Of a stretch of DNA of 64,000 nt, positions 19,101 through 39,746 are shown piece after piece; position 1 is the stretch's first letter, and every line of letters starts with the position of its first letter. The notes beneath the pieces are model-generated. The model was not told the origin of the DNA, ran no database searches, and saw only the letters and a program-made list of their open reading frames with translations. Both the position numbers and the translations under genes were made by a program. This DNA comes from a virus. Where the stretch lies: the IMG/VR virus record IMGVR_UViG_3300001798_000009, positions 1 through 64,000 of that record. One strand, given 5' to 3'.

Positions 19101-20129
19101 TTATCCCCCGAGCGCCTGACTAAGGAGGGTGCGTGCCTCCCCGGCGTTAAATTGTAACAGGCTTGTTACGACTTTTGACAGGGCCATCTGCGGAAGGTCG
19201 ACTAGGATGCCGCCCTCCGTCGCGTTGACCACGTCGAGATTCCAAAGTTTCACGATGTTATAAAGAGAATCACGATAGCCGAGGAACGGTGCGTAGGTCT
19301 GCACCTCACCGTCGATGCCTTTCGTCATCACCTTGCCTGTGCGCCGCTCGAGGTTGTAGGCGTGGTCGGGCACTTCGCGCCGCCAGCCGCTTTCCAAGAA
19401 CATCGATTGATGCTGGTAGACCCAGTCGTCGGCGCTCATCTTGCCGTCGGTGTAGCCGTAGTCCTGACCGACTAGGACGATCTTTCCGGCCCCCATCTCC
19501 GCCGCAAGCTGCACGGCCATGTTCCCGACGTTTCCTAGGCAGTAGAGCGCTGGCATGCCGGGGAACAGATGCGGCAGGCCGTGGTCGAAGAACTGCGTGC
19601 CTGGGTTCTCATGGCTCATGTAGCGCACGCGGCCGCGCCAGGCTTGGACCACGTCTGGGTGCAAGCAGACGGACGCGACGAGCGTCTGGCCCTTACTCTG
19701 CGGGTAGTCCAGCATCTTAGCGATGTGGTATGGCCGCGGGTCCACGGCGACCACAATGTCCGGACAAATGTCCCGCGCCGTGAGCGCCTTCGCCGCTCGG
19801 TCGCACGCGATGATGATGCCTGGGAAGTCTCGCAAGCTGTCCACGTTCTTGTCCAGGCTCGCGCCAGCGCCGACCACGGCAACGGGGCGGCCGCCGAGCC
19901 TGTTGAGCAGGGGGCCGATGTGGCCGGCGGCCAGGATGTCGTGGTAGTGCCAGGCGATGTTGCGCATGTAGGGGCCGACCCATCCCTGCATCTCCTGTTC
20001 GGCCTCCCAGTTGCGGTCGACGATGAGCGGGTGCTTGAGCGTCTTTACCTCGACGCCCATGGCGTGCATGCGCTCGAGGCCGCGCTCGATCTCCTCGTCC
20101 TTGTTGACTTCTGCGGCCACTTCGCTCAT
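19101..20129 (-). CDS. DUF115/Maf-like glycosyltransferase, copy 1
   Basis: 342 residues. Core motifs of the DUF115 (MAF_flag10) family: PVAVVGAGASLDKNVDSL (83-100), IIIACDRAAKAL, CPDIVVAVDP, GNVGNMAVQLAAEMGAGKIVLVGQDYGYTDGK, and the late VNATEGGI. Maf enzymes transfer pseudaminic or legionaminic acid to flagellin Ser/Thr. The C-terminal part carries the family's second domain. It is sandwiched between tail-completion and tail-tube genes with 1-base to 4-base junctions, so it is made with virion proteins. Role in virion or surface glycosylation is inferred. Confidence 0.88.
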   Translation of the reverse strand: MSEVAAEVNKDEEIERGLERMHAMGVEVKTLKHPLIVDRNWEAEQEMQGWVGPYMRNIAWHYHDILAAGHIGPLLNRLGGRPVAVVGAGASLDKNVDSLRDFPGIIIACDRAAKALTARDICPDIVVAVDPRPYHIAKMLDYPQSKGQTLVASVCLHPDVVQAWRGRVRYMSHENPGTQFFDHGLPHLFPGMPALYCLGNVGNMAVQLAAEMGAGKIVLVGQDYGYTDGKMSADDWVYQHQSMFLESGWRREVPDHAYNLERRTGKVMTKGIDGEVQTYAPFLGYRDSLYNIVKLWNLDVVNATEGGILVDLPQMALSKVVTSLLQFNAGEARTLLSQALGG

Positions 20130-20590
20130 GAGGTGACGTCCTCGCGGTACCAGACGCGGTAGGTCTCTGATCGGAAGTACGCCTTGGCCTCGTCGTCGAA
20201 CAGGTCCGGGCCGTAGCCGCCTGGCTCAGGCTTGAGGCCGGTCACGTTTGCGTCGGTCGTCGGGAGCGTGCAGCCGTAGAGGTCGGTGAGTAGGCGCCGG
20301 ATCCGCTTGTGCGCTGACTCGACGGTGTCTGGGTTGGCGCTCCACGCGGTCACGGTGAAAACCTTTTCTCCAAGGCGCATCTCAGGCCCGTTGGTCGATC
20401 CGTCGCCGCCGCCCCCGATGAACATCCAGGTGACGTAGGAACGGGCCGCGCCGGCCGCCGCGCTGAAGTCAGGCGTGGTTGGGAAGTGGCCCTCGTAGAC
20501 GCCGTATGGCGTGGCCGCGTGGGCCAGAAGCGTGCGCAAGGTCGCGTCGTCACGCATGGCCTTATGGACCATCTCCTTAAGGACCTTCAC
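20126..20590 (-). CDS. Tail terminator / completion protein candidate
   Basis: 154 residues. Sequence style (AMRDDATLRTLLAHAATPYGVYEGHFPTTPDFSAAAGAARSYVTWMFIGGGGDG, FTVTAWSANPDTVESAHKRIRRLL) fits the DUF3168-like tail completion group, which caps the tail and joins it to the head. It comes after the gp10-like gene in the usual neck order. Starts and stops overlap neighbours by 4 bases. Confidence 0.65.
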   Translation of the reverse strand: MKVLKEMVHKAMRDDATLRTLLAHAATPYGVYEGHFPTTPDFSAAAGAARSYVTWMFIGGGGDGSTNGPEMRLGEKVFTVTAWSANPDTVESAHKRIRRLLTDLYGCTLPTTDANVTGLKPEPGGYGPDLFDDEAKAYFRSETYRVWYREDVTS

Positions 20591-21081
20591 AAGCGCGCCG
20601 CCGCCCGTAGGAGTGCTTCGCGGACTAGGTACTGCCCTCGCGGTCCCTTGGCGATCAGAGCTGGCCGGAAGGCTGGGAAGGCGCGCCGGCCGGCCGTGCC
20701 GAACTCCAAATCATTCATGTGCTTCTGCGCGCTGTAGACCTTGCCGGAGATGCTCCGCGTGAAGCCGGTGCCTGAGACTTTGGCCTGCACCAGGAAGACC
20801 GAATTGCGCGACACTCCGGTATGTGTGAGCCAGCGCATCATTCCGCGGAACTCGCCGACCTCGCCGCCGGTGCGCACGCGGTAGGTGTCGAGCGAGTCGC
20901 GATCGCCGCGCGTTCGTTTTAAGGTCAGCTTGTTCACCTTAGGGTGGCCGTCGCGGATGTGGGCCTGGACCTCGCCGATGGTCACGTCGATCGCGTCAAT
21001 AATTAAGTCCTCGGCAGACAAGGCATACTTGTCGAACTTGAGGTTCTTCGCTGTCACAGAAATCTGGAACCCGTCAGCCAC
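20587..21081 (-). CDS. HK97 gp10-like neck protein
   Basis: 164 residues. C-terminal half contains YSAQKHMNDLEFGTAGRRAFPAFRPALIA, the signature of the HK97-gp10/tail-component family (Y-x-x-x-x-E-FGT-x-x-x-x-A-xPF-x-RPA). These proteins help join head and tail. Located between the head closure and tail completion genes. Confidence 0.78.
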   Translation of the reverse strand: MADGFQISVTAKNLKFDKYALSAEDLIIDAIDVTIGEVQAHIRDGHPKVNKLTLKRTRGDRDSLDTYRVRTGGEVGEFRGMMRWLTHTGVSRNSVFLVQAKVSGTGFTRSISGKVYSAQKHMNDLEFGTAGRRAFPAFRPALIAKGPRGQYLVREALLRAAARL

Positions 21082-21720: not shown

Positions 21721-21724
21721 AGTT

Positions 21725-22546
21725 TTATCCGAGTGCCTGTTCCGCCGACGCCCACGCCTTCACGAAGCCGGCACCGCCGTTCTCGTGCCCGAACCATATC
21801 TCTGGCACCGCCACGGCGTCGATGTCTCGCAGCCGTTGGAGCTCAGAGCCAAGGTCGAAGGTGTTGGCCGGGTCGTCGATCGCCAGGCCCTCACCGTCCA
21901 TGCCCTTCGCTCCTGAATAGTGTATGTGACGAACGTGTTCTTTCACCAGTGAAACAGCTTCGGAGACGTCGAACTTCATCGCCTGCGACGCGAGGTAGAG
22001 GTGGCAGAGGTCGAGGGTCATGCCGATCTTGTGAGTGGTGCAAATCTCGGCCATCTGTTTTACGTCCACGCCGAGGTTGGCGATCCAGTCACCGCCAAAG
22101 AACCAGCAGTGGCGAGGCACGTTCTCGATGAGGATGTCGGCCTCGTTGCCGGCAGCCGCGACCATGGACTCGATCGTCCTGCCAAGCTGAGAGCGAGCGT
22201 CGTCTATCTGCGACTGCGTGAACACGTCGACGTCCATGCCGCCAGGGTGGAAGACAATTTTCGGTTTGCAATTCGCGAAATGCGGAGCCCACTGGACGGC
22301 TTTGCGGACAGCCATGCAGTAGAGGTCTTCCGCCGCGCGTCGCTTGGTTTCGTTGAGGCTTGCTGCGTCAACCAGGTCGCCTTTGTCGTACTCAGGCAGG
22401 TGGACGGCGAGCGGCGCGTCGTAGGTGCTCGGCGGCGTCCAGAGCAGGTCGTCTACGGAGCAGTGCATCTCGACGAGCGACGGCTTGTGCGCCATCATCT
22501 CGTGCAGGTCACGCGGGCGCGCCTTAATGCCGCGAACGTTCAGCAT
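21725..22546 (-). CDS. TIM-barrel sugar isomerase/epimerase
   Basis: 273 residues from ATG at 22546 (MLNVRGIKARPRDLHEMM). Family pattern of xylose-isomerase-like barrels: VEMHCSVDD, KIVFHPGG, ILIENVPRHCWFFGG, IGMTLDLCHLYLASQAM, VRHIHYSGAKGMDGEGLAID, AVPEIWFGHE; E, D, H and E in these are probable metal ligands. Such enzymes interconvert sugars or sugar phosphates. It directly follows NeuB in transcription order, so it likely supplies or modifies the nonulosonate precursor. Confidence 0.75.
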   Translation of the reverse strand: MLNVRGIKARPRDLHEMMAHKPSLVEMHCSVDDLLWTPPSTYDAPLAVHLPEYDKGDLVDAASLNETKRRAAEDLYCMAVRKAVQWAPHFANCKPKIVFHPGGMDVDVFTQSQIDDARSQLGRTIESMVAAAGNEADILIENVPRHCWFFGGDWIANLGVDVKQMAEICTTHKIGMTLDLCHLYLASQAMKFDVSEAVSLVKEHVRHIHYSGAKGMDGEGLAIDDPANTFDLGSELQRLRDIDAVAVPEIWFGHENGGAGFVKAWASAEQALG

Positions 22547-22634: not shown

Positions 22635-23780
22635 TCAGCATGGGCCGGCCCCCACCGTCACCTTCTTGTCGATGTCCTGCGCGCTTAAGTGTACACCGGC
22701 CGCGACGTCGCGCGCCATAACTGCGTGCGTTCGGACGAGGTAGGTGGCGAGGAACGGCGACAGGCCGCGGCCGGGGGACCTCGCCTCGAGCATGTCCATG
22801 GTGACGGGCTCACCGGCCTTGATGTCGCGCCGCGCGCAGAGGCTCTTGCCGAGGATCTCCTGCGTCTGCGCCTCGCCGCGCGTCGGCACCTTCGTGGAGT
22901 ACGGGTCCCCGTAGGCGTCCTCGGTCGCGCGGATCCGCTCCACGAGCTTCTTGAGGCCGTCCGGCTCGAGCGAGGCCGCTTGGTCGGGGCCGGGCAGGGT
23001 CCGGTCGAGCGTGAAGTGGCGCTCGATGATGTCTGCGCCCAGCGCAGCCGCCGAGGTGCTGACGGCGACACCGCGCTCGTGGCCGGACCAGCCGACGGGG
23101 ACGCCGTGGTTGATCTTCATGCGCAGGATGCTGTGCAGCTGGCAGTCGCGGAAGGCCGTTGGGTAGCTCGACACCGTGTGCATAAGCGCGAGCCGGCCGG
23201 GGAACATCTCCTTCAGCGTCGGGATCACTTCGAACAGCGCGATCTCGTGTTGCATGCCTGTCGACACGATCACCGGCTTTCCGGTCGCCGCGATCTTCGC
23301 GTGCAGGAACGGGTTGTTGAAGTCGCACGACGCCACCTTGTAGGCATCGACGCAGAGCGCCTCGAGGAAGTCGACGGACGGCTCGTCGAACGGAGTGACC
23401 AAGAAGCCCAGGCCCAAGGCCTCGGCCAGCGCCTTCAGCCTGGGATAGTCCTTGTCCGGCAACTGCGTCTGCTTCAGCACGGGCAGGTAGTGGGCCAGGC
23501 CGTGCGCCGCGCGGTTGGGGTCGGCGAACGCCTCGGGCGTGTAGGTCGCCTGTAGGTCGCGCCGCTGGAATTTCACAACGTCCACGCCGGCGTCGGCCGC
23601 GGCGCGGACCATGTCCATGGCGCGGGCCGTGTCCCCGCCGTGGTTGATGCCGCACTCGGCCACGATCAGGCACGGGTGCGCGCCAGCGTTCGAAGCCTGC
23701 GCAAAGGTTACAGCTTCGTTGCCGACCTTCTTGCCAAATATCTCGATGGCGGCCGGCGCCGCTTGTGGAATGCGGCTCAT
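22635..23780 (-). CDS. neuB: Nonulosonic (sialic-type) acid synthase NeuB-like
   Basis: 381 residues. NeuB barrel motifs: IVAECGINHGGD (39-50), VVKFQ (68-72), YKVASCDFNN (147-156), STGM (173-176), HTVSSYPT (201-208), GWSGHERG (230-237), IERHFTLDRTLPGPDQAASLE (252-272). A C-terminal SAF antifreeze-like domain (about 300-375) completes the usual architecture. The enzyme condenses phosphoenolpyruvate with a hexosamine-type sugar to a nine-carbon acid (sialic, legionaminic or pseudaminic type). Which acid cannot be told. It overlaps the methyltransferase by 4 bases, and lies between structural genes. Confidence 0.93.
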   Translation of the reverse strand: MSRIPQAAPAAIEIFGKKVGNEAVTFAQASNAGAHPCLIVAECGINHGGDTARAMDMVRAAADAGVDVVKFQRRDLQATYTPEAFADPNRAAHGLAHYLPVLKQTQLPDKDYPRLKALAEALGLGFLVTPFDEPSVDFLEALCVDAYKVASCDFNNPFLHAKIAATGKPVIVSTGMQHEIALFEVIPTLKEMFPGRLALMHTVSSYPTAFRDCQLHSILRMKINHGVPVGWSGHERGVAVSTSAAALGADIIERHFTLDRTLPGPDQAASLEPDGLKKLVERIRATEDAYGDPYSTKVPTRGEAQTQEILGKSLCARRDIKAGEPVTMDMLEARSPGRGLSPFLATYLVRTHAVMARDVAAGVHLSAQDIDKKVTVGAGPC

Positions 23781-24679: not shown

Positions 24680-25609
24680 TCAGTCTGAAGGCGACACCGG
24701 GTTCATGATGGTGTTGTAGCGGATCACCATGCCTTGCTTGTAGCCGCTGTCGTTCTGCATCGTCGTGGACATCACGCCGACGAAGTCTTCCTTTCCTGCA
24801 GCCGTCGGCGTGTCTGACAAAAGCGTCACGGACATCGGACCTCGGAACCCAAGCTCCGCGGACAGCGACAGAACGTCTGGCTCGTTCGTTGTCGAGAATG
24901 CACCGATAAATCTTTGCAAGCCCGAAGCCGTCAGCGCGTCCCCAGCGCATGCGACCGCCGCCGATCCTGAGAACGTCAAGAGGCCAGAGGCCGACGAGAT
25001 GTCTGATGCTGTCGCCGGCGATTCCGCCCCAGCAAAGTTTAGTTGAGCTGTCGCCTCCAACACGTCCGCGCCCAAGGTGGGACCGGAAGAACCGGAGAAG
25101 CTCATCACTCCTGCGGCGGCCATCGCGTCGTTCGCAGACGACGTCGACGCGGTCCCTGAGAACAGCAGCAACCCGGACGCTGCTTGTGCGTCGTCGTCGT
25201 TCGTAACCTCTAATGTTCCGTCGAAGCTCGAGCCAGCGGTCCCGGTAGCAGCCATTGCATCCGCTGTTTCCGTCTGCGCGGACGTGCCTGTGAAATTCAA
25301 CTTGCCGACCACTGCCGAGGAGTCGCCGGCTGAAGTAGCCGAAGCGCTCCCAGAGAAGACCTCTTTCCCGACTCCGGCCATGACGTCTGGGGATAATGTC
25401 GGTGCCGCTGATCCGGTAAATATTTCCTTGCCAGACGCCGATGACGTGTCGGCTGCCAGAGACACCGCCAACGTGCCGGTAATTGGCGGGGCTCCTCCGG
25501 TTGGCATGGAGTAGCCGAGGAACCACCCCTGCTCCGTCCACGGCGATGCAGGGGCTGAGAACTCTTGCCCAATCGATACCGGCGCGACGTCGTTTAGTTC
25601 CCAGGCCAT
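24680..25609 (-). CDS. Ser/Thr-rich protein of twelve 21-residue repeats
   Basis: 309 residues. After a 45-residue N-terminus, about twelve tandem units of 20-24 residues follow, consensus L-x-F-S/T-G-S/T-A-x-x-T-x-x-x-D-x-x-x-A-x-G, covering residues 45-290. This is the style of beta-solenoid or fibre-type surface repeats. The units are unusually rich in Ser, Thr, Ala and Gly with few Lys or Arg. It lies within the sugar-gene cluster, four junctions from NeuB. An Arg-rich frame of similar length on the same strand is its shadow. Virion location and glycan acceptor role are inference. Confidence 0.75.
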   Translation of the reverse strand: MAWELNDVAPVSIGQEFSAPASPWTEQGWFLGYSMPTGGAPPITGTLAVSLAADTSSASGKEIFTGSAAPTLSPDVMAGVGKEVFSGSASATSAGDSSAVVGKLNFTGTSAQTETADAMAATGTAGSSFDGTLEVTNDDDAQAASGLLLFSGTASTSSANDAMAAAGVMSFSGSSGPTLGADVLEATAQLNFAGAESPATASDISSASGLLTFSGSAAVACAGDALTASGLQRFIGAFSTTNEPDVLSLSAELGFRGPMSVTLLSDTPTAAGKEDFVGVMSTTMQNDSGYKQGMVIRYNTIMNPVSPSD

Positions 25610-25612
25610 TCA

Positions 25613-26293
25613 TCAGGCGATGTCGATCTCATCACAACTGATCTCGATATTGAACTTGCGCGTGTCCGAGGTAGTCCCGGCTACGTCCTGGTATATCACG
25701 AAGCCCTCGCCAGGACGGAATACTGGCCACGCGTCTTCTTCTGCCGCTGGGTCAATCATGTCCTTATCGCACGGCTCGTAGGCACCAACGGCGGTTATAG
25801 CACCAGCGAGAGCTGCATGGGCAAAGCCTATTCCGACATGAACTACGGTGCATCCAGTGTTCACCAACGAGAACAGCGCAGCGGGAGCAGTCTGCGTTGA
25901 GTCGTTTGTGTTTGGGGAAATCAACGACGTGTTGAGCGCCCCGGATGATGTGAATCGTCGGATGAGGAGGCGCGGTGCCGTCGGCGTGGCAAGAGCAGTT
26001 GAGTGCTGAGAGGACACGCCGATCCTTCGAATCCTCATCGCCTTGCCGCTGACAGCAGAGCCCATGTGACCGAACAGCATTCCGGCCGTCGTTCCGTTCT
26101 GCGCAGACGCAAGAACGGTCGCCTGGACGAGCGCGAGTCGATATGTCGTGATGACCTTCTTCGCCCTCTGCATCACGAAGTAATGCGTATGAACAGTGTT
26201 GGCTCCGACGACCTCGGTCTGCGTTCTGACTTTCTTTCCGGTGTTGCCAGAATCATCCGGCAGTGTGATTATTGCGTCGATAGGAGCAGCCAT
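25613..26293 (-). CDS. Phage structural protein, 226 residues
   Basis: Starts MAAPIDAIITLPDDSGNTGKKVRTQTEVVGANTVHTHYFV, a pattern I associate with minor virion proteins of siphoviruses, followed by a beta-rich body (RIRRIGVSSQHSTALATPTAPRLLIRRF). Three base pairs separate it from the repeat protein gene. Function in the virion not known. Confidence 0.65.
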   Translation of the reverse strand: MAAPIDAIITLPDDSGNTGKKVRTQTEVVGANTVHTHYFVMQRAKKVITTYRLALVQATVLASAQNGTTAGMLFGHMGSAVSGKAMRIRRIGVSSQHSTALATPTAPRLLIRRFTSSGALNTSLISPNTNDSTQTAPAALFSLVNTGCTVVHVGIGFAHAALAGAITAVGAYEPCDKDMIDPAAEEDAWPVFRPGEGFVIYQDVAGTTSDTRKFNIEISCDEIDIA

Positions 26294-26695
26294 TTATGGA
26301 TTCCCCTCAGTGATCGTAGCACTCGTGATGCTAACCTGCGCGCCGACCTGAATGGCCACGCTGTTAAGGTTGATGTCCGCGCCAGACGTGCCGACGGAGC
26401 AGTCGAGGACGAAGGCCCCGGTCGAGTCTACGATGCGCGCCCACGTCGCAGTGCCGGTCGCGTTCGCGCTCGAGTCTGCCGTGATGGCGCTGAGAGTTAG
26501 AACACCGCCAGAGGCCGCGCCAGCGGACGGATCCGACATGGTCAGTTCGGCGAGCAGCGTAGTGGCGGCGCCGCCGGTGGCCGGTCGAGACCCGTCATAG
26601 AAGCGCAGTAGGCCAGCCCCGGCCCCTGCGTCGATCGCCGTCTTGATCTGGTCGAGCCGTGCGTTGCGCAGCGTCGTCGCGTATCCTATCGCCAT
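26294..26695 (-). CDS. Phage structural protein, 133 residues
   Basis: MAIGYATTLRNARLDQIKTAIDAGAGAGLLRFYDGSRPATGG and the following Ala/Gly/Thr-rich beta segments match a common phage tail/head protein type. ATG is directly upstream of a shared border with the 226-residue structural gene. Probably a virion surface or connector component. Confidence 0.68.
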   Translation of the reverse strand: MAIGYATTLRNARLDQIKTAIDAGAGAGLLRFYDGSRPATGGAATTLLAELTMSDPSAGAASGGVLTLSAITADSSANATGTATWARIVDSTGAFVLDCSVGTSGADINLNSVAIQVGAQVSITSATITEGNP

Positions 26696-26937
26696 GCGGC
26701 CTCCTTGGCCTTCACGACCTTAACGGCTGCTGCGTAGGCCACCTTCTTGGCCTTCTCGTGCGATACCTCGAACCCTTCCAAAACTTCAACAGGCCCGGAG
26801 CCGACGCGTCCGTACACGCGGACGGTCCAGGGAAAGCGTCCGAACTTATCGGCGCCCGACTGGACCATGCACTCGTGGTAGTAGTTCGGCGACGGCCGGT
26901 CCGTTCCGAGCAGTCGTCCGACTATTTTCTTGATCAT
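26686..26937 (-). CDS. Hypothetical protein, 83 residues
   Basis: Basic N-terminus (MIKKIVGRLLGTDRP), a beta-rich middle (WTVRVYGRVGSGPVEVLEGFEV), and a helical Lys/Ala-rich end. Overlaps structural neighbours by 4 and 10 bases. No family recognised. Confidence 0.6.
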   Translation of the reverse strand: MIKKIVGRLLGTDRPSPNYYHECMVQSGADKFGRFPWTVRVYGRVGSGPVEVLEGFEVSHEKAKKVAYAAAVKVVKAKEAAWR

Positions 26938-27308
26938 ATGGGGTCCTCAACTTCAGTCAGTATGAATCGAAACGTAACGCCGAGCGTTGTCGACGAGCCG
27001 TGGTTGATGTAGAGGCCCTCGCCCTTGTTGGTTTGAAAGTGGCCGTCGTCGTCCTTGTTGAGGTTGAAGCCCTGGTTGACGATCAGCGGGTATGTGCCGC
27101 TTTTCTTTGATCCCTGAGCACCTGACGCAAAATAGACCGCGCACTCCCCCGACGACATCAGCAGGCCGGCCAGGATGCGGATGCACTTGCCGGGCACACC
27201 GGCCTGCAACAACTGCAAACCGGTTCCGGAGGTATCGGCATATGATCGATGGACGCGGCACCCCACGTTGGCCTCGTCGAATATGACGCCAGAGATGCGT
27301 TTGCTCAT
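26934..27308 (-). CDS. Hypothetical structural-type protein, 124 residues
   Basis: ATG at 27308 overlaps the radical-SAM stop by 4 bases. Beta-rich: MSKRISGVIFDEANVGCRVHRSYADTSGTGLQLLQAGVPGKCIRILAG, then LIVNQGFNLNKDDDGHFQTNKGEGLYINHGSSTTLGVTFRFILTEVE. The C-terminal strand pattern resembles small capsid-decoration or fibre-head proteins. Not assigned to a family. Confidence 0.62.
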   Translation of the reverse strand: MSKRISGVIFDEANVGCRVHRSYADTSGTGLQLLQAGVPGKCIRILAGLLMSSGECAVYFASGAQGSKKSGTYPLIVNQGFNLNKDDDGHFQTNKGEGLYINHGSSTTLGVTFRFILTEVEDPI

Positions 27309-30061: not shown

Positions 30062-30459
30062 GCGTCGACCTCCGTCATCTGGCCGTCCACCATACGGTAA
30101 ACCTTCCGCGCGCTCGAGGGTTGTGCCGCCGCCTGCGGGCCGGCCGCGCTCATGCCCTTCTTCCACACGCGCTGCACGCTGAAAGCCTCGTAAGGATTGG
30201 TCTCGCAGGCCGGCTTCTCGTCGCCGGACGCGTCGGTCGCCTGCGCCCACACCTCTCTGGTGTAGTTCAGCAGGCAACCGACGCCGGGCCGCTCGATGAC
30301 CTTCTTAAGCTGGGCGACGTGCTTCACGGATAGGACCTCGCCGGCGCAGACAAGGACCTTGCCTCGCAAACCCACGATGGGGTCGATGAGCGCCATGCCG
30401 GGCTGCAGGTCCTTAACGTGAACCTTCCGGGCGATGCCGATGTAGCGCGTCGCGCGCAT
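30058..30459 (-). CDS. Small protein like the N-terminal domain of HD-GYP proteins, copy B
   Basis: 133 residues: VKDLQPGMALIDPIVGLRGKVLVCAGEVLSVKHVAQLKKVIERPGV resembles the short beta domain (V-x-D-L-x-x-G-M-x-L ... L-x-x-G-x-x-L-x-x-x-x-x-x-x-L) in front of many HD-GYP domains. No HD-GYP residues follow. Related to the next gene upstream. Role unknown; possibly a minor head protein, judged by its place after the capsid gene. Confidence 0.6.
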   Translation of the reverse strand: MRATRYIGIARKVHVKDLQPGMALIDPIVGLRGKVLVCAGEVLSVKHVAQLKKVIERPGVGCLLNYTREVWAQATDASGDEKPACETNPYEAFSVQRVWKKGMSAAGPQAAAQPSSARKVYRMVDGQMTEVDA

Positions 30460-31031: not shown

Positions 31032-32042
31032 TTAGCTGACGAGGACGAAGCCGCGCCAGTTCACAATCTTGGCGCCGAAGCGTTCCTCGGTGCGGGTGCG
31101 GTGCATCCCGTTCTCGAAGTGCATCCCGGTGCCGAGGCCTTCCTGCATGATCTCGAGACCCTTGCGCTTCTGGTGCATCAGGCCGGGGAAGTTCGTCTTC
31201 ACGTACCAGTCCGTCAAGGACGCGCGGTCCAGGCGGTGGCTGGCGATGACGCCGATCTTCTTGAGGCCCAAGGCGTTGGGCATGAGGCCGTTGTTCGTCG
31301 CCGGCCCGAGCGCGCCGGCAGCGTAGCCGACGGGCAGCAGGTCCGCGCGCGTCAAGCCGAAGGCGACCGGCTGCAGCGTGACGGGCACGACGAGCGCGTC
31401 GACCATGATGTCGAGGTCCTGGTCGGCATCGGCGCCTTCCCAGATCGCGATCTTGCCGAGCACCGTCGCCAGGGCGTTAGCCGAGAGCGTCACGGCGGTG
31501 TAGATGTTGTCGTTGCTGCCGCGCGCCGCGCCGCCAGTGTAGCCGGGGTGGTCGAGCGCGAACAGGTCCCCGCCGTCGTAGATCGGGGGATTGTCCGTCA
31601 GGATGGAGAAGAAGGCCTTGTCCTTGTAGCGGGCGTGGCCGGAGCCGAGCGCCGCGGCCTGCTTGGACAGGGTCTTGCCGGGGGTCTGGTCGTCTTCGGA
31701 GGCCTCGCTGGTCAGCTCGATGATGCCGCCGTACTTGAAGTTCGTGACCTTGACGGTGTCCGGCGAGCCGGGGTTCAGGGTCTTGAACTTCTCGCCCTCG
31801 AGCACCTTGCGGGGCAGCTCGGTCGCGCCCATCGTCGGGTAGGTCTCCTCGTTGGACTCGCTCGTCTCGTCGACGGTGAGCTGCTCGAAGTTCGTCTGCG
31901 CCTGCGCGCGGGAGTACGCGTCGATGATCGTGCCCTTGAGCCCTTTGGCCATGAAGGCAGCGAAGTCGGAGCGGGTCATGGCCTCGCGGAGGGCCTTGCC
32001 GTCGCCGTTCTTGATTACGGCTTCCATCTCTTGAATCGTCAT
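31032..32042 (-). CDS. Major capsid protein, Mu gpT-like
   Basis: 336 residues. HK97-fold sequence style: MTRSDFAAFMAKGLKGTIIDAYSRA, VDETSESNEETYPTMGATELPRK, FKYGGIIELTSEASEDDQTPGK, AFFSILTDNP (typical of Mu gpT group), ADLLPVGYAAGALG, RNWRGFVLVS end. It assembles the head shell. It is followed by a strong hairpin and preceded by two Maf-like genes with junctions of 1 and 4 bases. No protease-cleavage site assigned. Confidence 0.9.
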   Translation of the reverse strand: MTIQEMEAVIKNGDGKALREAMTRSDFAAFMAKGLKGTIIDAYSRAQAQTNFEQLTVDETSESNEETYPTMGATELPRKVLEGEKFKTLNPGSPDTVKVTNFKYGGIIELTSEASEDDQTPGKTLSKQAAALGSGHARYKDKAFFSILTDNPPIYDGGDLFALDHPGYTGGAARGSNDNIYTAVTLSANALATVLGKIAIWEGADADQDLDIMVDALVVPVTLQPVAFGLTRADLLPVGYAAGALGPATNNGLMPNALGLKKIGVIASHRLDRASLTDWYVKTNFPGLMHQKRKGLEIMQEGLGTGMHFENGMHRTRTEERFGAKIVNWRGFVLVS

Positions 32043-32043: not shown

Positions 32044-32895
32044 TCAGTTTCCTCCGAGGGATAATATTGTCGTCGGCGTGCGAGACTCGAGCAGACCGGG
32101 CATGGTGCGGGCGATGTCGGAGTACCAGGACGCGAACGCCAATAGGCTCCCCGTCGTCTTCACCGGCTTACCGCGGCTGTCGGGCACAGTCATGACCGTG
32201 CCTGCGTCGGCTTCGGTCTTGATGCGAATATCCGCCAGGTCCTTCTGGACGCCGCCCGCGTAGAACTCGGCGTCGTCGGTCCAACAAAAATCGTGTCCGT
32301 AGAGCAGTATCTTCGCAACGGCCCGGACGGAGCCGAGGAAGCTGACGCCGAGGCTGGAGACGTTGCCGCCGGGGACAAGAAACGAGGAGACTCCGGATTT
32401 CTTCGCGTGGTCGTGTTGCATCCAGTCGTTGGCTTCCTTGTCGCGGTAGTTCGACATCATGCAGAACCAGAAGATGTCGCCGACCCAGTCCTTCGCGGTG
32501 TCAGGGTGGACCACGACGTTCAGCAAGAGCGCGACCTCGGGAGGCGCCGCGACCAGCGTCCGCGCGATCTCCTCGGAGGCGTCGGCGCAGATCACGTAGT
32601 CGGGCACCAAGCCGTTGTCGAGGAGGAACTTGAGCGCCATGTCGACGCACACGATCTCGTGCGTGTTCCTATCGATCGCCTTGAGCTCCGCGAGGCTGTC
32701 CTTGAGGCTCGGGCCGGCGGCGATCAGCACGCCGGTCTTCGGGTTGACGTCGCACCAGAGGCGCGACACCTGGAAGACAATTCGGCCCTTGTTCGCCGCG
32801 GCGTGACGCGACCAGCGGTCCTTGTGGGCCGCAGCAGATGCGTGGCCACGATTGGCCAGGACCTCTTTTACGTCAGGGGCGATCATGGGGCTCAT
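32044..32895 (-). CDS. DUF115/Maf-like glycosyltransferase, copy 2
   Basis: 283 residues from ATG at 32895, which overlaps the stop of copy 3 (ATGA). Family motifs: TGVLIAAGPSLKDSLAELKAID, EIVCVDMALKFLLDNGLVPDYVICADASEEI, GGNVSSLGVSFLGSVRAVAKILLYGHDFCWTDDAEFYAGG, and a late LLAFASWYSDIAR. Compared with copy 1 it lacks most of the C-terminal part. It is transcribed just before the capsid gene, one base away, which makes capsid protein a candidate acceptor. Donor specificity unknown. Confidence 0.85.
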   Translation of the reverse strand: MSPMIAPDVKEVLANRGHASAAAHKDRWSRHAAANKGRIVFQVSRLWCDVNPKTGVLIAAGPSLKDSLAELKAIDRNTHEIVCVDMALKFLLDNGLVPDYVICADASEEIARTLVAAPPEVALLLNVVVHPDTAKDWVGDIFWFCMMSNYRDKEANDWMQHDHAKKSGVSSFLVPGGNVSSLGVSFLGSVRAVAKILLYGHDFCWTDDAEFYAGGVQKDLADIRIKTEADAGTVMTVPDSRGKPVKTTGSLLAFASWYSDIARTMPGLLESRTPTTILSLGGN

Positions 32896-33878
32896 GCCGT
32901 GACAGCTTCCCGCGCGCAGGTGGGCGCATACTTCGCGACCGCGTCCGCCAGAGACAAGTGTTCCCAGCCAACGAGGGTGTTGCCTTTCTTGCCGACGCCC
33001 AAGATCCCGCCCTCGGTCGCGTTGACGCAGTGGCCGGGGTGCGCGGAGGCGATCTCCTCGTGCCACGACTTCAGGTGAAAGAGAGTGAAGTTCGTCGCGT
33101 TCTCTGCGCCGCCGAGGCCGCTGTGGGAGAGAATCTGTTCGCCGGACATGCGCTCTGCGGCTAGCTTCTGGTGGGCGCCGCCGGCGTAGAAGTCGTTGTC
33201 GTCGAGCCACGCGTAGTCGGCGCCGACGAAGACTACCTTCGTGGCCCGGAGCAGCGAGAGGGCGAAGACATGCGCGTAGGACGTCACGTTGCCGCCGCAG
33301 GCGAGCGCGTCGTTGAGGCCGGCAAACACCACCTCGACGTCTGCGACAGGGTCGATCTCCTCGCCGGGGAGCATGGCGCGCTTTGCCTTGACGATTCGGT
33401 GCGCCGCGTGCAGCTTGTCGTCGAGCTCCCTAGAGCCGCCGGTGGCGCGCAGGAAATACTTCGGGCCGCGCCACGCGTTGATGAGGGCCGGGCTCGCGGA
33501 GGCTTGCGCGACAAGAGTAGTCTTGGACGTATCCACTCCTTCAATCATCGTTACCATGCGCGTGTCGGCGTCAATCGTGGCGCAGTAGTCGGGCGTGACG
33601 CCCTGCTCAACCAGATATCGGTAGGCGGCGTCCACGCATACGATGACGCCCATGCGGCCGATGGTCTTGAGCGCCTTGACGTTCTTGCGGAGAGAGGGGC
33701 CGGCCGCGACCACGAAGGCGGTCAGGCCGAGCAGGGGCGGGTTGGGGGTGAGGAAGTGAGGCCGATTGGCCGTCACGTTGGCGAGCCAAGAATCGGCGCG
33801 CGCCTCGATCGTCTTTTCGTTGGCGCACGAGTCCATGAACGAGGACACCTGCTTCGCCTTCTCGGAGAGATCAGACAT
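32892..33878 (-). CDS. DUF115/Maf-like glycosyltransferase, copy 3
   Basis: 328 residues from ATG at 33878 (MSDLSEKA); another in-frame ATG lies 24 bases upstream. Motifs: TAFVVAAGPSLRKNVKALKTIG, VIVCVDAAYRYLVEQGVTPDYCATIDADTRMV, CGGNVTSYAHVFALSLLRATKVVFVGADYAWLDDNDFYAGGA, and VNATEGGILG like copy 1. Sequence divergence between the three copies is high, so they may have different acceptors. It follows the decoration gene and a hairpin. Confidence 0.86.
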   Translation of the reverse strand: MSDLSEKAKQVSSFMDSCANEKTIEARADSWLANVTANRPHFLTPNPPLLGLTAFVVAAGPSLRKNVKALKTIGRMGVIVCVDAAYRYLVEQGVTPDYCATIDADTRMVTMIEGVDTSKTTLVAQASASPALINAWRGPKYFLRATGGSRELDDKLHAAHRIVKAKRAMLPGEEIDPVADVEVVFAGLNDALACGGNVTSYAHVFALSLLRATKVVFVGADYAWLDDNDFYAGGAHQKLAAERMSGEQILSHSGLGGAENATNFTLFHLKSWHEEIASAHPGHCVNATEGGILGVGKKGNTLVGWEHLSLADAVAKYAPTCAREAVTA

Positions 33879-33917
33879 TTCCGTTTTTCCTTTTCGTCGC
33901 ATCGTCGATACGAAGAC

Positions 33918-33962: not shown

Positions 33963-34910
33963 TTAGATGCCCCAAGAACCGACGCGGGGCACGACGCCGA
34001 GGCCGCGGATGTTCTTGATGCGCGCCGCCGACTGGGTTGCCGCGCTGAACTGGATCAGCAGGGCGATCGGAATCTCCCCGGCAGTCATCGTGACAGGCGC
34101 GAGCAGGCCCGCCGTCACGCCGGCCACCGTGTAGGAGGCCAACGCGGCTTTGCTTCCGGATCCGGAGCGGATGGCGAATGATCCGGAGCGCGCCACGACC
34201 CACTTGAACCGGATGGTGGACGCCGCTGCAGAGCCGACGCCGCCGAACGCGAGCGTCACGTCCTGGGCGATCGACTTGATGGCGTTCTGGATCAGCACGA
34301 GGTTCTTATGGACGACCGTGCCGGTGTTGTGGCCGACCTTAACCTGCGATCCGGGCGCGGCGTGCAGCAAGACCTCGCAGCCGTTGACCACTCGGTTCTC
34401 GAGCCAGTGCGCGACGTCAGGCCCGCCGGTGGGCTTGAGGATCAACTCGCACAGCTGCAGGTCGCCGGACGAGGCGCCCGAGAAGTCGCTGACCACGCGC
34501 GCCACCGCATAGCCCTGGCGCATGTTGTCGATCGCGAACAGCTGCGCGCCGGACGCGCCGGACGCGTAGACGACCGCGTCGCCGGCCTTGCCAGCCGCAG
34601 TGGAGAGGGCTAGGTAGAACTGCCCCTCGCGCAGGACGTTGATCTTGTTGTCCGCGTCCGGGGTGGCGTAGTCCGTCGCGCCGACCACGGCCGAGGTGAA
34701 GACGTTATCGGCCACGCCGACGCACCACTGGCCCTGGCGGGCCGCGGCGATCGGGCTGACGCGCCCGGCCGGCCCGAGAGCCGAGAGGCTGATCGGGTCG
34801 TTCTTGCGAGCCATGACCACGACGTCGCCCGACGAGATGTCGGTCGACGCCTTGGGGATGAGTTGGATGCTGTCCGCCGAGCAGGCGCGGTTCTCTTTCT
34901 TCTGGGCCAT
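33963..34910 (-). CDS. Head decoration / capsid stabilisation protein
   Basis: 315 residues. The first 150 residues (ISSGDVVVMARKNDPISLSALGPAGRVSPIAAARQGQWCVGVADN, KINVLREGQFYLALSTAAGKAGDAVVYASGASGAQLF) resemble DUF2190-like capsid decoration proteins. The rest is Ala/Ser/Gly-rich beta sequence. SD GGAGGAA before ATG 34910. Lies between scaffold/protease and capsid genes, the usual place for a head-decorating protein. Confidence 0.7.
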   Translation of the reverse strand: MAQKKENRACSADSIQLIPKASTDISSGDVVVMARKNDPISLSALGPAGRVSPIAAARQGQWCVGVADNVFTSAVVGATDYATPDADNKINVLREGQFYLALSTAAGKAGDAVVYASGASGAQLFAIDNMRQGYAVARVVSDFSGASSGDLQLCELILKPTGGPDVAHWLENRVVNGCEVLLHAAPGSQVKVGHNTGTVVHKNLVLIQNAIKSIAQDVTLAFGGVGSAAASTIRFKWVVARSGSFAIRSGSGSKAALASYTVAGVTAGLLAPVTMTAGEIPIALLIQFSAATQSAARIKNIRGLGVVPRVGSWGI

Positions 34911-36232: not shown

Positions 36233-36239
36233 AGGGCTC

Positions 36240-37235
36240 CTAAGCAGGCTCCGGAATCTTCGACCCTGTGGCGTGCAGTGTCGATCGCCAATACTGTAGC
36301 AGGTCGGCCAAAGTTCGCGCAAGCGGAATGCTCGGCTCCCATCCAAAAGCAAGACGGGCTTTCATCCCGTTGCCGACCAAACGCGCAACGTCCGACGGAC
36401 GCATGCGCTTCGGGTCCTGCACCTTCGTCACATTGACGTGCGCGAGCGCGCAGAGGTTGTCGAGAACTTGGCGCATGGTCGGGGACGCATCGGATCCTGA
36501 GCAGAGATTGTAGACCTCACCGGTCTGTCCGTTGTCGATCGCCATGACGTAGCCGCGCACAATGTCGCGGACGTCGGTGTAGTCGCGGATCGCGTCAAGA
36601 TTTCCGTGCATAATGGCAGGCTCTTGCAAGCCTGCCTCGATGAGCGCGACCTGCCTCGCCCAGTCGCTTTCGGCGAAGACCTTCCCGCGGCGCGGGCCGG
36701 TGTGGTTAAACGACCGTGTGACGATCACATGTAAATTGTAGCTGGCGGCGTATTGCAGCGCGAACATCTCAGCCCCGACCTTCGACACGCCGTAAGGCGA
36801 GAGCGGGCGCAGCGGCTGCGATTCCGCGATGGGTACTTCGTGCGCTTCGACGCGGCCATACTCCTCGCTGGACCCGGCCACCTGGACTCGCGCCCCAGGT
36901 GCGCTGCGGCGCACCGCCTCAAGAAGATTTAGCGTCCCTTTGATGTTCGCGTCGATCGTTGCGTGCGGCGCGTCCCAAGACGTCGGCACGTAGGAGTGCG
37001 CGGCCAGGTGAAAGATGTGCGTGGGCATCAATCGCGCGACGAGATCAGTGATCGCCACTTCGTCGGTGATGTCACAAAAATGAATCGTATACGTGACGGG
37101 ATCGATGTGCGCCAGGTTGGAGAGGTCACTGCGGAATGATCTGATCGTGCCGTGGACTTCAGCGCCGATTGAAATCAGATGCTCAATGAGGTGGGAACCA
37201 ACGAATCCGTTTGCTCCGGTGATCAGCGCACGCAT
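36240..37235 (-). CDS. NAD(P)-dependent sugar epimerase/dehydratase
   Basis: 331 residues of the extended SDR family: GANGFVGSH at 7-15, S122-S-E-E-Y126, Y148-G-V-S-K152, RSFNHTGPRRG near 193-203, and AIRDYTDVRDIVRGYVMAI. The RSFNHTGPR and SEEYG segments are closest to GDP-mannose 4,6-dehydratase / GDP-6-deoxy-lyxo-hexulose reductase and related 4-epimerases. It could make a 6-deoxy sugar precursor for a nonulosonate or for a second sugar. Inserted between gpF-like and protease/scaffold genes; the start follows a short leader TGATG. Confidence 0.88.
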   Translation of the reverse strand: MRALITGANGFVGSHLIEHLISIGAEVHGTIRSFRSDLSNLAHIDPVTYTIHFCDITDEVAITDLVARLMPTHIFHLAAHSYVPTSWDAPHATIDANIKGTLNLLEAVRRSAPGARVQVAGSSEEYGRVEAHEVPIAESQPLRPLSPYGVSKVGAEMFALQYAASYNLHVIVTRSFNHTGPRRGKVFAESDWARQVALIEAGLQEPAIMHGNLDAIRDYTDVRDIVRGYVMAIDNGQTGEVYNLCSGSDASPTMRQVLDNLCALAHVNVTKVQDPKRMRPSDVARLVGNGMKARLAFGWEPSIPLARTLADLLQYWRSTLHATGSKIPEPA

Positions 37236-37308
37236 CAGCTGGCTTTGTAGATCATGTTGGGAAGTTTATACCATGCGGGCAGTTCGCAACGCAAATATAT
37301 TTTTGTCA

Positions 37309-37512: not shown

Positions 37513-37513
37513 G

Positions 37514-37681: not shown

Positions 37682-37715
37682 CTTTTTTCTAAAAAGCGGG
37701 GGCGGTTGTCTACCA

Positions 37716-37845: not shown

Positions 37846-37865
37846 CCTGACTGCTTTTTGACGCA

Positions 37866-39029
37866 TCATTCGGGGTCCGCCGGCGTGTCCGAAAGCGGGC
37901 TATCGAACTCCGTTTTCGGCGCGAGAATTGAATAGCACAAGCACTGCGGATGTTGCGGATAATTGTCAGCGAACTCCTCCGGGGTCATCTCCTTGCCACC
38001 CAAGTCGTCGCACTCGTCCTCCTCGCGCTGGCCGGCGCTGACCTGCCAGATCAGATTCCAGCCCTTCTTGTCGGCGAAGATCGTGTCGGATAGGATGTAG
38101 GCGCGGTTGGTCTCGGTGCGCGTGAGGCGCATGGCGTTGGCGTAGGCTGACCTGTATGAACCAGCGCCTGGCGTCGCATCAGCGCGCGCCGCGCCGCGCA
38201 GGGTCTTCGGTTGGACGAGTAGGCCCCGAATGGCGCGGCTGATCGTGGCCGGGTCTTCGCCGCGGGCGATGCCGCCGGACACGAGTCGCTTCATCTGCGC
38301 CATGTTCTGGCCGCGCAGGTCCCAGACCCTGCTCGAAACGCGCTTGCTCTTGCCGAACAGCCCTGCCGTCATCGTGTCCTTGAGCGCGCCTTTGAACAGC
38401 TTTTTGAAAACGTTGCTGCTCGGCGCGTAGGTCAGTTGCTGGTTCAGAGGGTCGGCCTCGTCAAGCGGAACGTAGACGTAGCAGCCGGATCGGTACACAA
38501 GCTCCAGGTCAGCCCATTCCTGCTCAGTGGTTTTGCCTCTGGCGTGGGCTACAACGGCCTCCGCGTTCTGCATGGAGTGGGAGAGGCCCACTTTGACGGC
38601 GGCCCGGAGAGCGGCCTGGAAGCCCTGAGCAATGGTCGCGTAGGCCTCTTTGTTCCGATCGGATAGGTCTCTTACGATCGACGGATATCGGTTCGAAGGA
38701 ATGGCGCCGGTTTTCCCGTATCGGTTTAAGATCGTGTCCGCGCGGTCGGCCAGCGTGCGCAGCGCGTCCGCCGTGACATGCTCATCGCGCTTCTGCTGGA
38801 CTAGGAAGGCACGGCGCATAACGCGCTTGCGGAGAGCGCCGATGTGTAGCGCGCGCGTTCGCGTAGTCCTCGAGGTGCAAGCTTTGGCCAGGTCCTCGGC
38901 CGCGGACACGCTGGCTTCGTCGCCTTTCCGACAGAGAGCAATGATCCGCTTCCACACCGAGCGGTCGCACTTCATGACCGGGTAGAGGTTGCGGATTCTT
39001 ATCGCGTCGTCTGGCAGATCAGCGGGCAT
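37866..39029 (-). CDS. Mu gpF-like head morphogenesis protein
   Basis: 387 residues. C-terminal half has the family signature: AYANAMRLTRTETNRAYILSDTIFADKKGWNLIWQVSAGQREEDECDDLGG ... NYPQHPQCLCY (an E near RTETNRA, C-x-D and PxHPxCxC). These proteins are minor head components that act during early capsid assembly, and may carry a fold related to ADP-ribosyltransferases in other members. Start at ATG 39029 overlaps the next gene upstream by 11 bases. Confidence 0.88.
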   Translation of the reverse strand: MPADLPDDAIRIRNLYPVMKCDRSVWKRIIALCRKGDEASVSAAEDLAKACTSRTTRTRALHIGALRKRVMRRAFLVQQKRDEHVTADALRTLADRADTILNRYGKTGAIPSNRYPSIVRDLSDRNKEAYATIAQGFQAALRAAVKVGLSHSMQNAEAVVAHARGKTTEQEWADLELVYRSGCYVYVPLDEADPLNQQLTYAPSSNVFKKLFKGALKDTMTAGLFGKSKRVSSRVWDLRGQNMAQMKRLVSGGIARGEDPATISRAIRGLLVQPKTLRGAARADATPGAGSYRSAYANAMRLTRTETNRAYILSDTIFADKKGWNLIWQVSAGQREEDECDDLGGKEMTPEEFADNYPQHPQCLCYSILAPKTEFDSPLSDTPADPE

Positions 39030-39249
39030 ATTGACCGCCGGGAGGCTGCGGCTCCCATTGCCAGACGTGCTGGCCGTTTGGTAGGCGGTAGACGTGCATC
39101 ACCCTTGGCTTCGGCGTCCAGCACGAAAGCGCCGCGACGCGGTCGCAGGACGGCGGGTTGTTCTTGGCGCGCGGCACGCCCTGCTCGGTCTCGCGGTCCC
39201 AGACCAGGCCGTGCGCGTACTGGAAGCGACTATCCTCTGGGGGATTCAT
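39019..39249 (-). CDS. Hypothetical protein, 76 residues
   Basis: ATG at 39249, overlapping the cupin stop by 4 bases. Sequence MNPPEDSRFQYAHGLVWDRETEQGVPRAKNNP, two cysteines, and VMHVYRLPNGQHVWQWEPQPPGG. Small, beta-rich, basic. The longer frame upstream is cupin shadow sequence. No family recognised. Confidence 0.6.
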   Translation of the reverse strand: MNPPEDSRFQYAHGLVWDRETEQGVPRAKNNPPSCDRVAALSCWTPKPRVMHVYRLPNGQHVWQWEPQPPGGQYAR

Positions 39250-39746
39250 TCCCAGTTCCTTCCGCCAGGGTGCTTTTCGATGTGCTTCGTCTCCTTGAGC
39301 GGGACAACGTGCTCCTTCTCGCCGTTGCCGATCTTGATGTCTTTGGGGGGGCCACTGATCACGCCACCTTTGGCGAACTCGACGCGTCCGTAGTCGTCCT
39401 CGAGGCGCTCGATGTCGTCCTCGCGCAGGTCGTTGCCGAGCCAGACCTCGACAACCATGAGCGGCTCTTTGGCGGGGTTGGCCAGGCGGTGCGCGGCACC
39501 ACGCGGGATCACAACCGAGTCTCCGGCAGCGAGCGCGTGTTTCACCCCTGAAACAGTGGCGACCGCGTTCCCCATGGCAACGGTCCAGCGCTCCTCGCGA
39601 TGCGTGTGCCGTTGCAGACTCAGGCGCTGCTCGCCTTTGACCAGCATGGCTTTGACGATGAAGCCGGGGCCTTGGTCGAGCAGTCGGAAGTGGCCCCACG
39701 GCCGCGTGGTCTTCGTCGTGTAGTCCGGCGCTTTATCGTTCGGCAT
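39246..39746 (-). CDS. Cupin, ManC-type mannose-6-phosphate isomerase domain
   Basis: 166 residues: RPWGHFRLLDQGPGFIVKAMLVKGEQRLSLQRHTHREERWTVAMGNAVATV ... VVIPRGAAHRLANP ... VEVWLGNDLREDDIERLEDDYGR. The two H of QRHTH, the E of REERW and the H of AAHR form the metal site of type II mannose-6-phosphate isomerases. It lacks the nucleotidyltransferase half normally fused in ManC. It would make mannose 6-phosphate, the root of GDP-mannose and 6-deoxy sugars, matching the nearby epimerase/dehydratase. The C-terminal 45 residues are extra. Confidence 0.85.
   Translation of the reverse strand: MPNDKAPDYTTKTTRPWGHFRLLDQGPGFIVKAMLVKGEQRLSLQRHTHREERWTVAMGNAVATVSGVKHALAAGDSVVIPRGAAHRLANPAKEPLMVVEVWLGNDLREDDIERLEDDYGRVEFAKGGVISGPPKDIKIGNGEKEHVVPLKETKHIEKHPGGRNWE

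What the first reader, a model, noticed from the sequence alone, without database searches (positions are those of the whole stretch)
19101..39746. Phage-encoded nonulosonic-acid synthesis and transfer set woven into the virion genes
NeuB (22635-23780), NeuA (28942-29697), a sugar isomerase, a methyltransferase, a B12/radical-SAM protein, an NDP-sugar dehydratase/epimerase, a ManC-type cupin and three Maf-like DUF115 proteins lie inside the head and tail genes, several joined to each other or to structural genes by 4-base overlaps. Known: NeuB makes a nonulosonic acid, NeuA activates it with CMP, and Maf transfers it to flagellin. Inference: the phage sugar-coats its own virion (or the cell surface) with a sialic-like acid, timed with late expression. 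A complete chain in a phage, mixed among virion genes, is to my knowledge unusual.
Basis: partly seen in the sequence, partly recalled or inferred. Interest (0 to 1): 0.9.

Follow-up and report, generated by a model that had tools for sequence, protein, structure and literature searches.

The report
Phage sugar-acid kit for its shell
A family of bacterial viruses carries, wedged between its shell and tail genes in a conserved order, enzymes that appear to make a sialic-acid-like sugar and fix it onto the virus's own particle; this looks like a new form of virus self-glycosylation.

Summary
NeuB, NeuA, a TIM-barrel isomerase, a methyltransferase, a B12/radical-SAM protein and three DUF115 proteins lie among the head and tail genes of a phage contig that looks circular. 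Six distinct, divergent relatives in IMG/VR (proteins mostly 27-49% identical to the window's, GC 37-46% against 63%) keep the order. A scan with the capsid protein alone found 6 contigs (4 phages); each carries the cassette as far as it reaches. One DUF115 gene directly precedes the major capsid gene (7 of 7 phages), another the major tail gene (5 of 5). Two modelled DUF115 proteins match the Maf flagellin glycosyltransferase best (Z 24.9, 21.6). Bacteria with the most similar NeuB type carry the same TIM barrel beside or fused to it, and NeuA nearby. Best reading: a phage-made, CMP-activated nonulosonic-type acid is attached to capsid and tail proteins by Maf-like enzymes. Corrections: the chain is incomplete; cupin and reductase are accessory; NeuB is common in viral contigs; a supposed active-site acid of NeuB varies among relatives and two lack its SAF domain. 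Product and acceptors are inferred.

The parts
42234..43937 (-). terminase large subunit (context)
   Evidence: phrog_38 7.1e-64
40500..42218 (-). portal (context)
   Evidence: phrog_10963 1.6e-13; found in 7 of 9 relative contigs
39246..39746 (-). mannose-6-P isomerase-type cupin, accessory
   Evidence: PF01050 7e-30; no match in the 9 relative contigs
37866..39029 (-). minor head protein (context)
   Evidence: phrog_1657 4.4e-17
36240..37235 (-). SDR, GDP-6-deoxy-lyxo-4-hexulose reductase-like, accessory
   Evidence: 2pk3 2e-76; same slot in one relative, 43.5% identity
34988..36352 (-). conserved head-region gene; 'protease' in my tables is a label by position only
   Evidence: no family match; found in 8 of 9 relative contigs, the ninth does not reach it
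33963..34910 (-). conserved head-region gene; 'deco' is a label by position only
   Evidence: no PHROGs match; 39-44% identical in relatives
32892..33902 (-). DUF115c, Maf-like glycosyltransferase domain
   Evidence: PF01973 1.3e-24; orthologues 37-43%
32044..32895 (-). DUF115b, Maf-like, directly upstream of MCP
   Evidence: PF01973 2e-20 for the longer ORF; predicted fold Maf Z 21.6; 4-bp overlap with DUF115c, 1 nt before MCP
31032..32042 (-). major capsid protein, proposed acceptor
   Evidence: phrog_133/371; orthologue in L123 Phage_capsid_4 1.4e-21 and Mu gpT-like
30058..30459 (-). small conserved protein after MCP, unknown
   Evidence: found in 6 of 7 relative contigs that span it; no family
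28942..29697 (-). NeuA/PseF-like CMP-sugar-acid synthetase
   Evidence: PF02348 3.4e-19, PseF 7.5e-35 but below cut-off, PDB 6ifd 2.2e-23
27305..28945 (-). radical-SAM protein with B12-type N-terminal part (CPYACKFC motif)
   Evidence: PF04055 5.6e-12, B12-binding 0.0098 below cut-off; motif
24680..27266 (-). block of four genes between rSAM and MT, one a virion structural protein
   Evidence: phrog_3758 5.1e-33 for 26294-26695, the other three without a named match; rSAM and MT are neighbours in L123, L124, L126
23777..24460 (-). SAM-dependent methyltransferase
   Evidence: PF08241 1.7e-13
22635..23780 (-). NeuB-family synthase with SAF domain, divergent subfamily
   Evidence: PF03102 2.7e-69; signature and tree
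21725..22546 (-). TIM-barrel isomerase-like partner of NeuB
   Evidence: PF01261 3.1e-10; fused to NeuB in bacteria
20126..20590 (-). tail terminator (context)
   Evidence: phrog_123 0.001; conserved
19101..20129 (-). DUF115a, Maf-like, directly upstream of MTP
   Evidence: PF01973 2.3e-31; predicted fold Maf Z 24.9 over 251 residues
18344..19099 (-). major tail protein, proposed acceptor
   Evidence: phrog_807 6.8e-11
15906..17606 (-). tape measure (context)
   Evidence: phrog_1535 1.9e-12

Best explanation
A virion self-glycosylation cassette. Expressed with the virion genes, the phage NeuB-type synthase, with its TIM-barrel partner, makes a nonulosonic-type keto-sugar acid from PEP and a host-derived sugar; NeuA activates it with CMP; the methyltransferase and the radical-SAM enzyme probably tailor it; the Maf-like transferases attach it in the cytoplasm to virion proteins before assembly, DUF115b/c most likely to the major capsid protein and DUF115a to the major tail protein. 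Shown: homology, domain content, predicted folds, conserved order and coupling. Inferred: timing, exact sugar, tailoring, acceptors, purpose (surface charge, shielding, adsorption or decoy).
For: Enzyme families. Predicted folds of DUF115a and b (pLDDT 85.4, 90.0) match Maf 5mu5 at Z 24.9 (251 residues, rmsd 2.8) and 21.6 (225, 2.6), ahead of HPPK (15.3, 15.7) and sialyltransferases (about 7-11); the DUF115 profile finds 5mu5 at 4.1e-16. Capsid-only scan, 6 contigs = 4 distinct phages: 6 of 6 carry DUF115b, NeuA and rSAM (one of them cut within rSAM); 5 of 5 that reach further carry MT, NeuB and iso; 3 of 3 that reach the tail carry DUF115a before MTP. DUF115b directly precedes MCP in 7 of 7 phages, window included (gaps 1-29 nt, taking the first start codon after the stop), and DUF115a MTP in 5 of 5 (gaps 1-22 nt). 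Sugar and virion genes diverged in parallel; the five phage NeuBs are one clade, 99/97. In bacteria, 6 of 6 loci with the window's NeuB signature have iso and NeuA, 0 of 31 others have iso (iso sought mostly within 1.5 kb; two of the six are near-copies). More distant phages have NeuA, NeuB and DUF115 near head or packaging genes. Maf acts in the cytoplasm on flagellin (PMC4065374, passages).
Against: No biochemistry or virion mass data. Upstream sugar enzymes are missing, and the binned genome has no other NeuB, so the precursor is unknown. The position of the NeuB active-site Glu (E134 of Neisseria NeuB, role recalled) is Asp in the window and one relative but Leu, Cys and Ser in the other three full relatives, and two relatives lack the SAF part; activity as a NeuB is therefore uncertain there. 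DUF115b lacks the conserved NATEGG motif of the others. Phage DUF115s lack Maf's outer domains. rSAM is only 25-28% identical, and shorter, in two relatives. Acceptors rest on position alone. Outside the lineage, 11 of 14 viral DUF115 loci show no NeuB or NeuA in the fetched stretch, and four viral NeuB+iso contigs (L127-L130) have neither DUF115 nor this capsid. All relatives are metagenomic contigs. Confidence was lowered from 0.70 to 0.65 for the NeuB residues.
Confidence: 0.65

Rival explanations
1. The sugar acid is put on the host cell surface (LPS, capsule or flagellin) to block superinfection or change the host serotype, not on the virion.
For: NeuB/NeuA commonly feed cell-surface glycans (recalled); Maf proteins act on flagellin; 0 of 36 congeners of the binned host have NeuB, so it would be a new surface sugar.
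Against: No flippase, polymerase or membrane transferase was seen among the scanned ORFs. Transferases sit directly before capsid and tail genes. Phage DUF115s lack the extra Maf domains. A place among virion genes suits late rather than early use (inference).
Confidence: 0.17
2. The DUF115 proteins are virion-assembly or nucleotide-binding proteins of the MptE/HPPK branch, and the NeuB/NeuA set is metabolic cargo unrelated to them.
For: Pfam names the family after MptE diphosphokinase; HPPK is the second-best fold (Z about 15). Several viral DUF115 loci have no NeuB/NeuA nearby.
Against: Maf is clearly the best fold and covers the domain (Z 24.9 and 21.6); all 6 contigs found by capsid have both DUF115 and NeuA; 10 of 80 viral NeuB loci (four of them with weak DUF115 scores, 1e-5 to 1e-9) and 24 of 80 cellular DUF115 loci pair DUF115 with NeuB and/or NeuA.
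Confidence: 0.12
3. The cassette makes a peptide or small-molecule modification other than glycosylation (the rSAM and the TIM barrel weakly resemble the RiPP enzymes ApyD and ApyH).
For: Weak NCBIfam matches: ApyD 1.5e-10, ApyH 6.7e-5, far below cut-offs. NeuB active-site position not conserved in relatives.
Against: The TIM barrel is fused or adjacent to this NeuB type in bacteria, with NeuA nearby, which ties it to sugar-acid synthesis.
Confidence: 0.06

Closest known systems
Maf flagellin glycosyltransferases with NeuB/NeuA (Aeromonas caviae, Campylobacter, Clostridium; 5mu5 of Magnetospirillum)
   Same: CMP-nonulosonate logic; central PF01973 domain of the same fold; cytoplasmic modification of a polymerising subunit
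   Different: Proposed acceptors are capsid and tail proteins; transferase is the central domain only; three paralogues; phage-encoded
Virion glycosylation of mycobacteriophages Che8, Corndog, Myrna (Freeman 2023, not read; seen as cited in passages of PMC12363180 and PMC12619734)
   Same: Phage-encoded transferases modify capsid and tail tube subunits
   Different: Here the phage also carries synthesis and CMP activation of a sugar acid, and the transferases are Maf-like; kinship with the mycobacteriophage enzymes was not tested here
Bacterial NeuB-SAF proteins with a fused or adjacent TIM barrel, and NeuA nearby, in the class of the binned host (six loci)
   Same: NeuB signature of the window's protein (AS-x-D, SGHE, SPG), TIM partner, NeuA neighbour
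   Different: Separate genes in the phages; relatives share SGHE but vary at the other two places; no DUF115 by tblastn in the six 8-18 kb regions; product unknown in both
Self-encoded capsid glycosylation of chloroviruses and mimiviruses (recalled)
   Same: Virus makes activated sugar and decorates its capsid
   Different: Eukaryotic viruses, other sugars and transferases

Membership tests
NeuB family (PF03102 + SAF) | NeuB barrel over the curated cut-off, C-terminal SAF domain | tested here: met
   233.7 vs 22.1 bits; SAF 24 vs 21. Two relatives have the barrel only
Canonical N-acetylneuraminate or pseudaminate synthase | NCBIfam equivalog cut-off; Glu in SGE motif, Asp in SDH, Arg before PG | tested here: not met
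   280.7 vs 399.65 and 210.9 vs 340.25 bits; window has D, G and S there; relatives L, C, D or S at the first place
NeuB-TIM subfamily of bacteria | AS-x-D / SGHE / SPG signature with TIM partner and NeuA in the same cluster | tested here: met
   Window protein; genes split, and NeuA in the same module but not adjacent. Relatives: SGHER in all five distinct NeuBs, the rest only in part
CMP-nonulosonate synthetase (NeuA/PseF) | CTP_transf_3 domain and ARxGSK...KN motif (motif recalled) | tested here: met
   69.9 vs 22.6 bits; motif
PseF equivalog | curated cut-off | tested here: not met
   120.6 vs 205.7 bits
Maf glycosyltransferase | central PF01973 domain with Maf/sialyltransferase fold | tested here: met
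   folds predicted for two of three paralogues
Maf glycosyltransferase | N-terminal Rossmann-like and C-terminal helical domains | tested here: not met
   283-342 aa against 632 in 5mu5; PseD cut-off 670 not reached
Maf glycosyltransferase | transfers nonulosonate to Ser/Thr of a protein | not testable with these tools
   needs biochemistry
Complete nonulosonate pathway | dehydratase, aminotransferase, acetyltransferase and hydrolase/epimerase present | tested here: not met
   None among scanned ORFs; small ORFs and the plus strand not scanned
Phage virion glycosylation system | glycan on purified virion proteins | not testable with these tools
   needs mass spectrometry

The most novel reading that the evidence does not exclude
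A phage lineage builds its own, perhaps undescribed, CMP-activated keto-sugar acid (NeuB-TIM pair plus radical-SAM and methyl tailoring) and uses acceptor-dedicated minimal Maf enzymes, a pair for the capsid and one for the tail tube, as a fixed part of virion maturation, and the same idea recurs in phages with other capsid types.
Probability: 0.5. Interest if true: 0.9.

Novelty: new variant of a known kind. Interest (0 to 1): 0.8.

Why it matters
It would show that phages can carry sialic-acid-type synthesis and transfer as part of the virion gene block, held through divergence to about 40% identity and large GC shifts. It offers minimal, soluble, acceptor-paired Maf-like transferases that could be studied without flagella, a way into a NeuB-TIM sugar acid also expected in bacteria, and a testable cause for surface charge, adsorption and recognition of environmental phages.

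Tried and rejected
LegB-like dehydratase: the SDR scored with LegB and GMD models below their cut-offs, but its closest solved relative is a GDP-6-deoxy-lyxo-4-hexulose reductase at 2e-76, so it was moved out of the nonulosonate chain.

Single-sequence scans with NeuB in viral and genome contigs and with TerL confirmed no relative; alignment queries were needed. Phages CRP-901/902 share TerL and MCP weakly; no sugar gene matched by tblastn in the stretches fetched, which leave out their first 8 kb.

Host: only binning links the phage to the 3.09-Mb assembly. GC is similar (0.626 against 0.641 in 11 sampled contig stretches), but the tetranucleotide correlation (0.54) is not decisive, since three other genomes reach 0.54-0.65. 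The host was left unnamed.

Counting distinct phages: I first took the relatives as seven; one search showed that 3300025009_001980 and 3300025117_001047 overlap at 99% over 411 bp, so they are six.

Papers: 10 searches; in the rows listed I saw no report of a phage NeuB/NeuA/Maf-like virion cassette. Only open-licence PMC papers are held and not all matching papers were listed. PMC6292376 looked relevant in a listing, but its hits are author names and a KDNase reference. Freeman 2023 is not held. PMC7439481 (passages) on the B. subtilis Leg route did not bear on the TIM barrel.

Ser/Thr candidates: MTP has seven conserved S/T columns at 86-97 and all five MCPs compared end in Ser; not tested as sites, so not used as evidence.
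Full report
WHERE IT IS. The window is nearly all of a 65,649-bp contig (G000:C72) of a 3.09-Mb, 247-contig assembly. The contig has an exact 58-bp direct repeat at its ends, so it is probably a complete circular or permuted phage genome that was binned with the bacterium. All genes discussed are on the minus strand. RecT, a Dda-like helicase and DNA methyltransferases, replication protein O and Thy1 and an amidase complete the phage picture.

WHAT IS THERE. Transcription order: portal, cupin, minor head, SDR, two conserved head-region genes, DUF115c, DUF115b, major capsid, small genes, NeuA, rSAM, four further genes (one a virion structural protein), MT, NeuB, iso, head closure, tail terminator, DUF115a, major tail, tape measure. 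Four junctions of interest are 4-base overlaps, and DUF115b and DUF115a each end 1 nt before MCP and MTP.

IT IS A CONSERVED MODULE. An alignment query with NeuB brought in 80 viral loci, of which four (L123-L126) share NeuB, NeuA, rSAM, MT, iso, DUF115 and MCP with the window. A scan with the capsid alone, which does not select for sugar genes, returned 6 contigs: 6 of 6 have DUF115b, NeuA and rSAM (one 5.5-kb contig ends within rSAM); 5 of 5 that reach further have MT, NeuB and iso (iso cut in one); 3 of 3 that reach the tail have DUF115a before MTP. Two pairs of these contigs are the same phage (MCP 100%), so they are 4 distinct phages. The DUF115c scan found 8 contigs of the lineage; the nine contigs in all amount to six distinct relatives, because two more are overlapping pieces (99% over 411 bp). 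In 3300002460_000040 (49.9 kb) even the SDR sits in the same slot; the cupin matched in none of the nine. GC of the retrieved stretches is 37-46% against 62.6%. Identities of sugar and virion genes run in parallel (MCP 60.5 and 70.7, NeuB 58.9 and 73.4 for the same two pairs); rSAM falls to 25-28% between the two subgroups. In the presence list the DUF115a entries of the shorter contigs, and the DUF115b entry of 3300025117_001047, are cross-matches between paralogues and were not counted.

THE TRANSFERASES. AlphaFold models of DUF115a (pLDDT 85.4) and DUF115b (90.0) have Maf 5mu5 as best fold (Z 24.9, 251 residues, rmsd 2.8; Z 21.6, 225 residues, rmsd 2.6). HPPK follows at about 15, sialyltransferases at about 7-11. 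Foldseek (DUF115a only, 2.4e-9) and the profile search agree. PMC11339370 (one passage, and the start of the abstract) says that the pfam01973 domain of Maf resembles the sialyltransferase Cst-II. The phage proteins are this domain alone. DUF115c was not folded. DUF115b lacks the NATEGG motif that the other two share with cellular members. DUF115b directly precedes MCP in 7 of 7 phages, and DUF115a MTP in 5 of 5. Maf glycosylates flagellin in the cytoplasm before export (PMC4065374, passages), so a soluble Maf-like enzyme could act on virion subunits before assembly (inference).

THE SUGAR. The window's NeuB matches solved sialic acid synthases (2.6e-40) but has Asp for the SGE glutamate, Gly for the SDH aspartate and Ser for the arginine before PG (roles of E134 and R314 of Neisseria NeuB recalled). 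Of 37 cellular loci compared, the best hits and not a random sample, 6 share this signature; all 6 have a homologue of the phage isomerase beside or fused to NeuB, and NeuA nearby; 0 of the other 31 have the isomerase (mostly 1.5-kb flanks; two of the six are near-copies). Two were read in full and are single ORFs of 635 and 773 aa. So the isomerase is very likely a NeuB partner. The five phage NeuBs form one clade (99/97) inside a group with the fused proteins and four other viral ones (92/92), apart from 20 canonical rows (100/97). Against a simple story, the glutamate position is Leu, Cys, Asp or Ser in the four full relatives, and two of these lack the SAF part, though all keep SGHER. The product, if NeuB is active, is a nonulosonic-type acid of unknown structure. 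No aminotransferase, acetyltransferase or hydrolysing epimerase was seen, so precursors must come from the host or another route. In the assembly NeuB occurs only on this contig; 0 of 36 congeners and 20 of 24 other genomes of the order match the NeuB model.

HOW COMMON. In phage records NeuB was found in 3 of 50,697, one of them labelled as a bacterium, and DUF115a and c in 0, by single-sequence tblastn, which is insensitive. In IMG/VR NeuB is frequent: 552 of 600 candidate stretches, limit reached. In the best 80, profile searches find NeuA in 62, DUF115 in 10 (four of these the lineage's contigs, four weak) and iso in 8. Of 24 viral loci fetched with DUF115c, 10 belong to the lineage; of the other 14, 3 carry NeuB or NeuA in the fetched stretch and 11 do not. 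Of 80 cellular DUF115 loci, 24 carry NeuB and/or NeuA. Outside the lineage, L334 (related capsid, GC 32%) has MCP, one gene, DUF115, NeuA, NeuB; L330 has another major head family, then DUF115, NeuA, rSAM, NeuB; L227 and L167 have the three genes within about 11 kb of terminase and portal genes. Some of these may be prophages.

VERDICT. A real, conserved virion-linked cassette; enzyme classes well supported, activity, acceptors and sugar inferred. Known relatives: Maf/NeuB flagellin glycosylation, and mycobacteriophage capsid and tail-tube glycosylation (passages in PMC12363180 and PMC12619734). I did not find the combination in print in the searches listed under Tried and rejected. I file it as a new variant of virion glycosylation.

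Noticed in passing
L103-L106, L111, L112: Bacterial NeuB-SAF proteins with a fused or adjacent TIM barrel, and NeuA nearby (the two read in full are fused; N-terminal CBS-like stretches by eye, not by a search), with a divergent active-site signature: possibly an uncharacterised sugar-acid route.
   Followed up: partly
L330 (IMGVR 3300005253_001119), L334 (3300024259_000061), L227, L167: Other phages or prophages with NeuA, NeuB and DUF115 near head or packaging genes of different families.
   Followed up: partly
L127-L130: Viral contigs with NeuB and the TIM-barrel partner, but without DUF115 or this capsid in the fetched stretch.
   Followed up: no
L174, L179: Viral contigs with two (L174) and three (L179) NeuB-like ORFs.
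   Followed up: no
window 52588-59911: Three DNA methyltransferase genes, one with a ParB-like N-terminal part.
   Followed up: no
window 18344-19099 (MTP residues 86-97) and MCP C-terminus: Cluster of conserved Ser/Thr in the major tail protein; all five MCPs compared end in Ser. Candidate acceptor sites only.
   Followed up: no
window 24680-27266: Block of four genes between rSAM and MT, absent in L123, L124 and L126; may be a place for insertions.
   Followed up: no
L020 (LR756508) and L021 (MH319754): NeuB with an SDR, plus NeuA (L020) or cupin (L021), in two unannotated large phage records.
   Followed up: partly
window 61309-62829: DUF2779 protein in a phage (1.1e-32).
   Followed up: no
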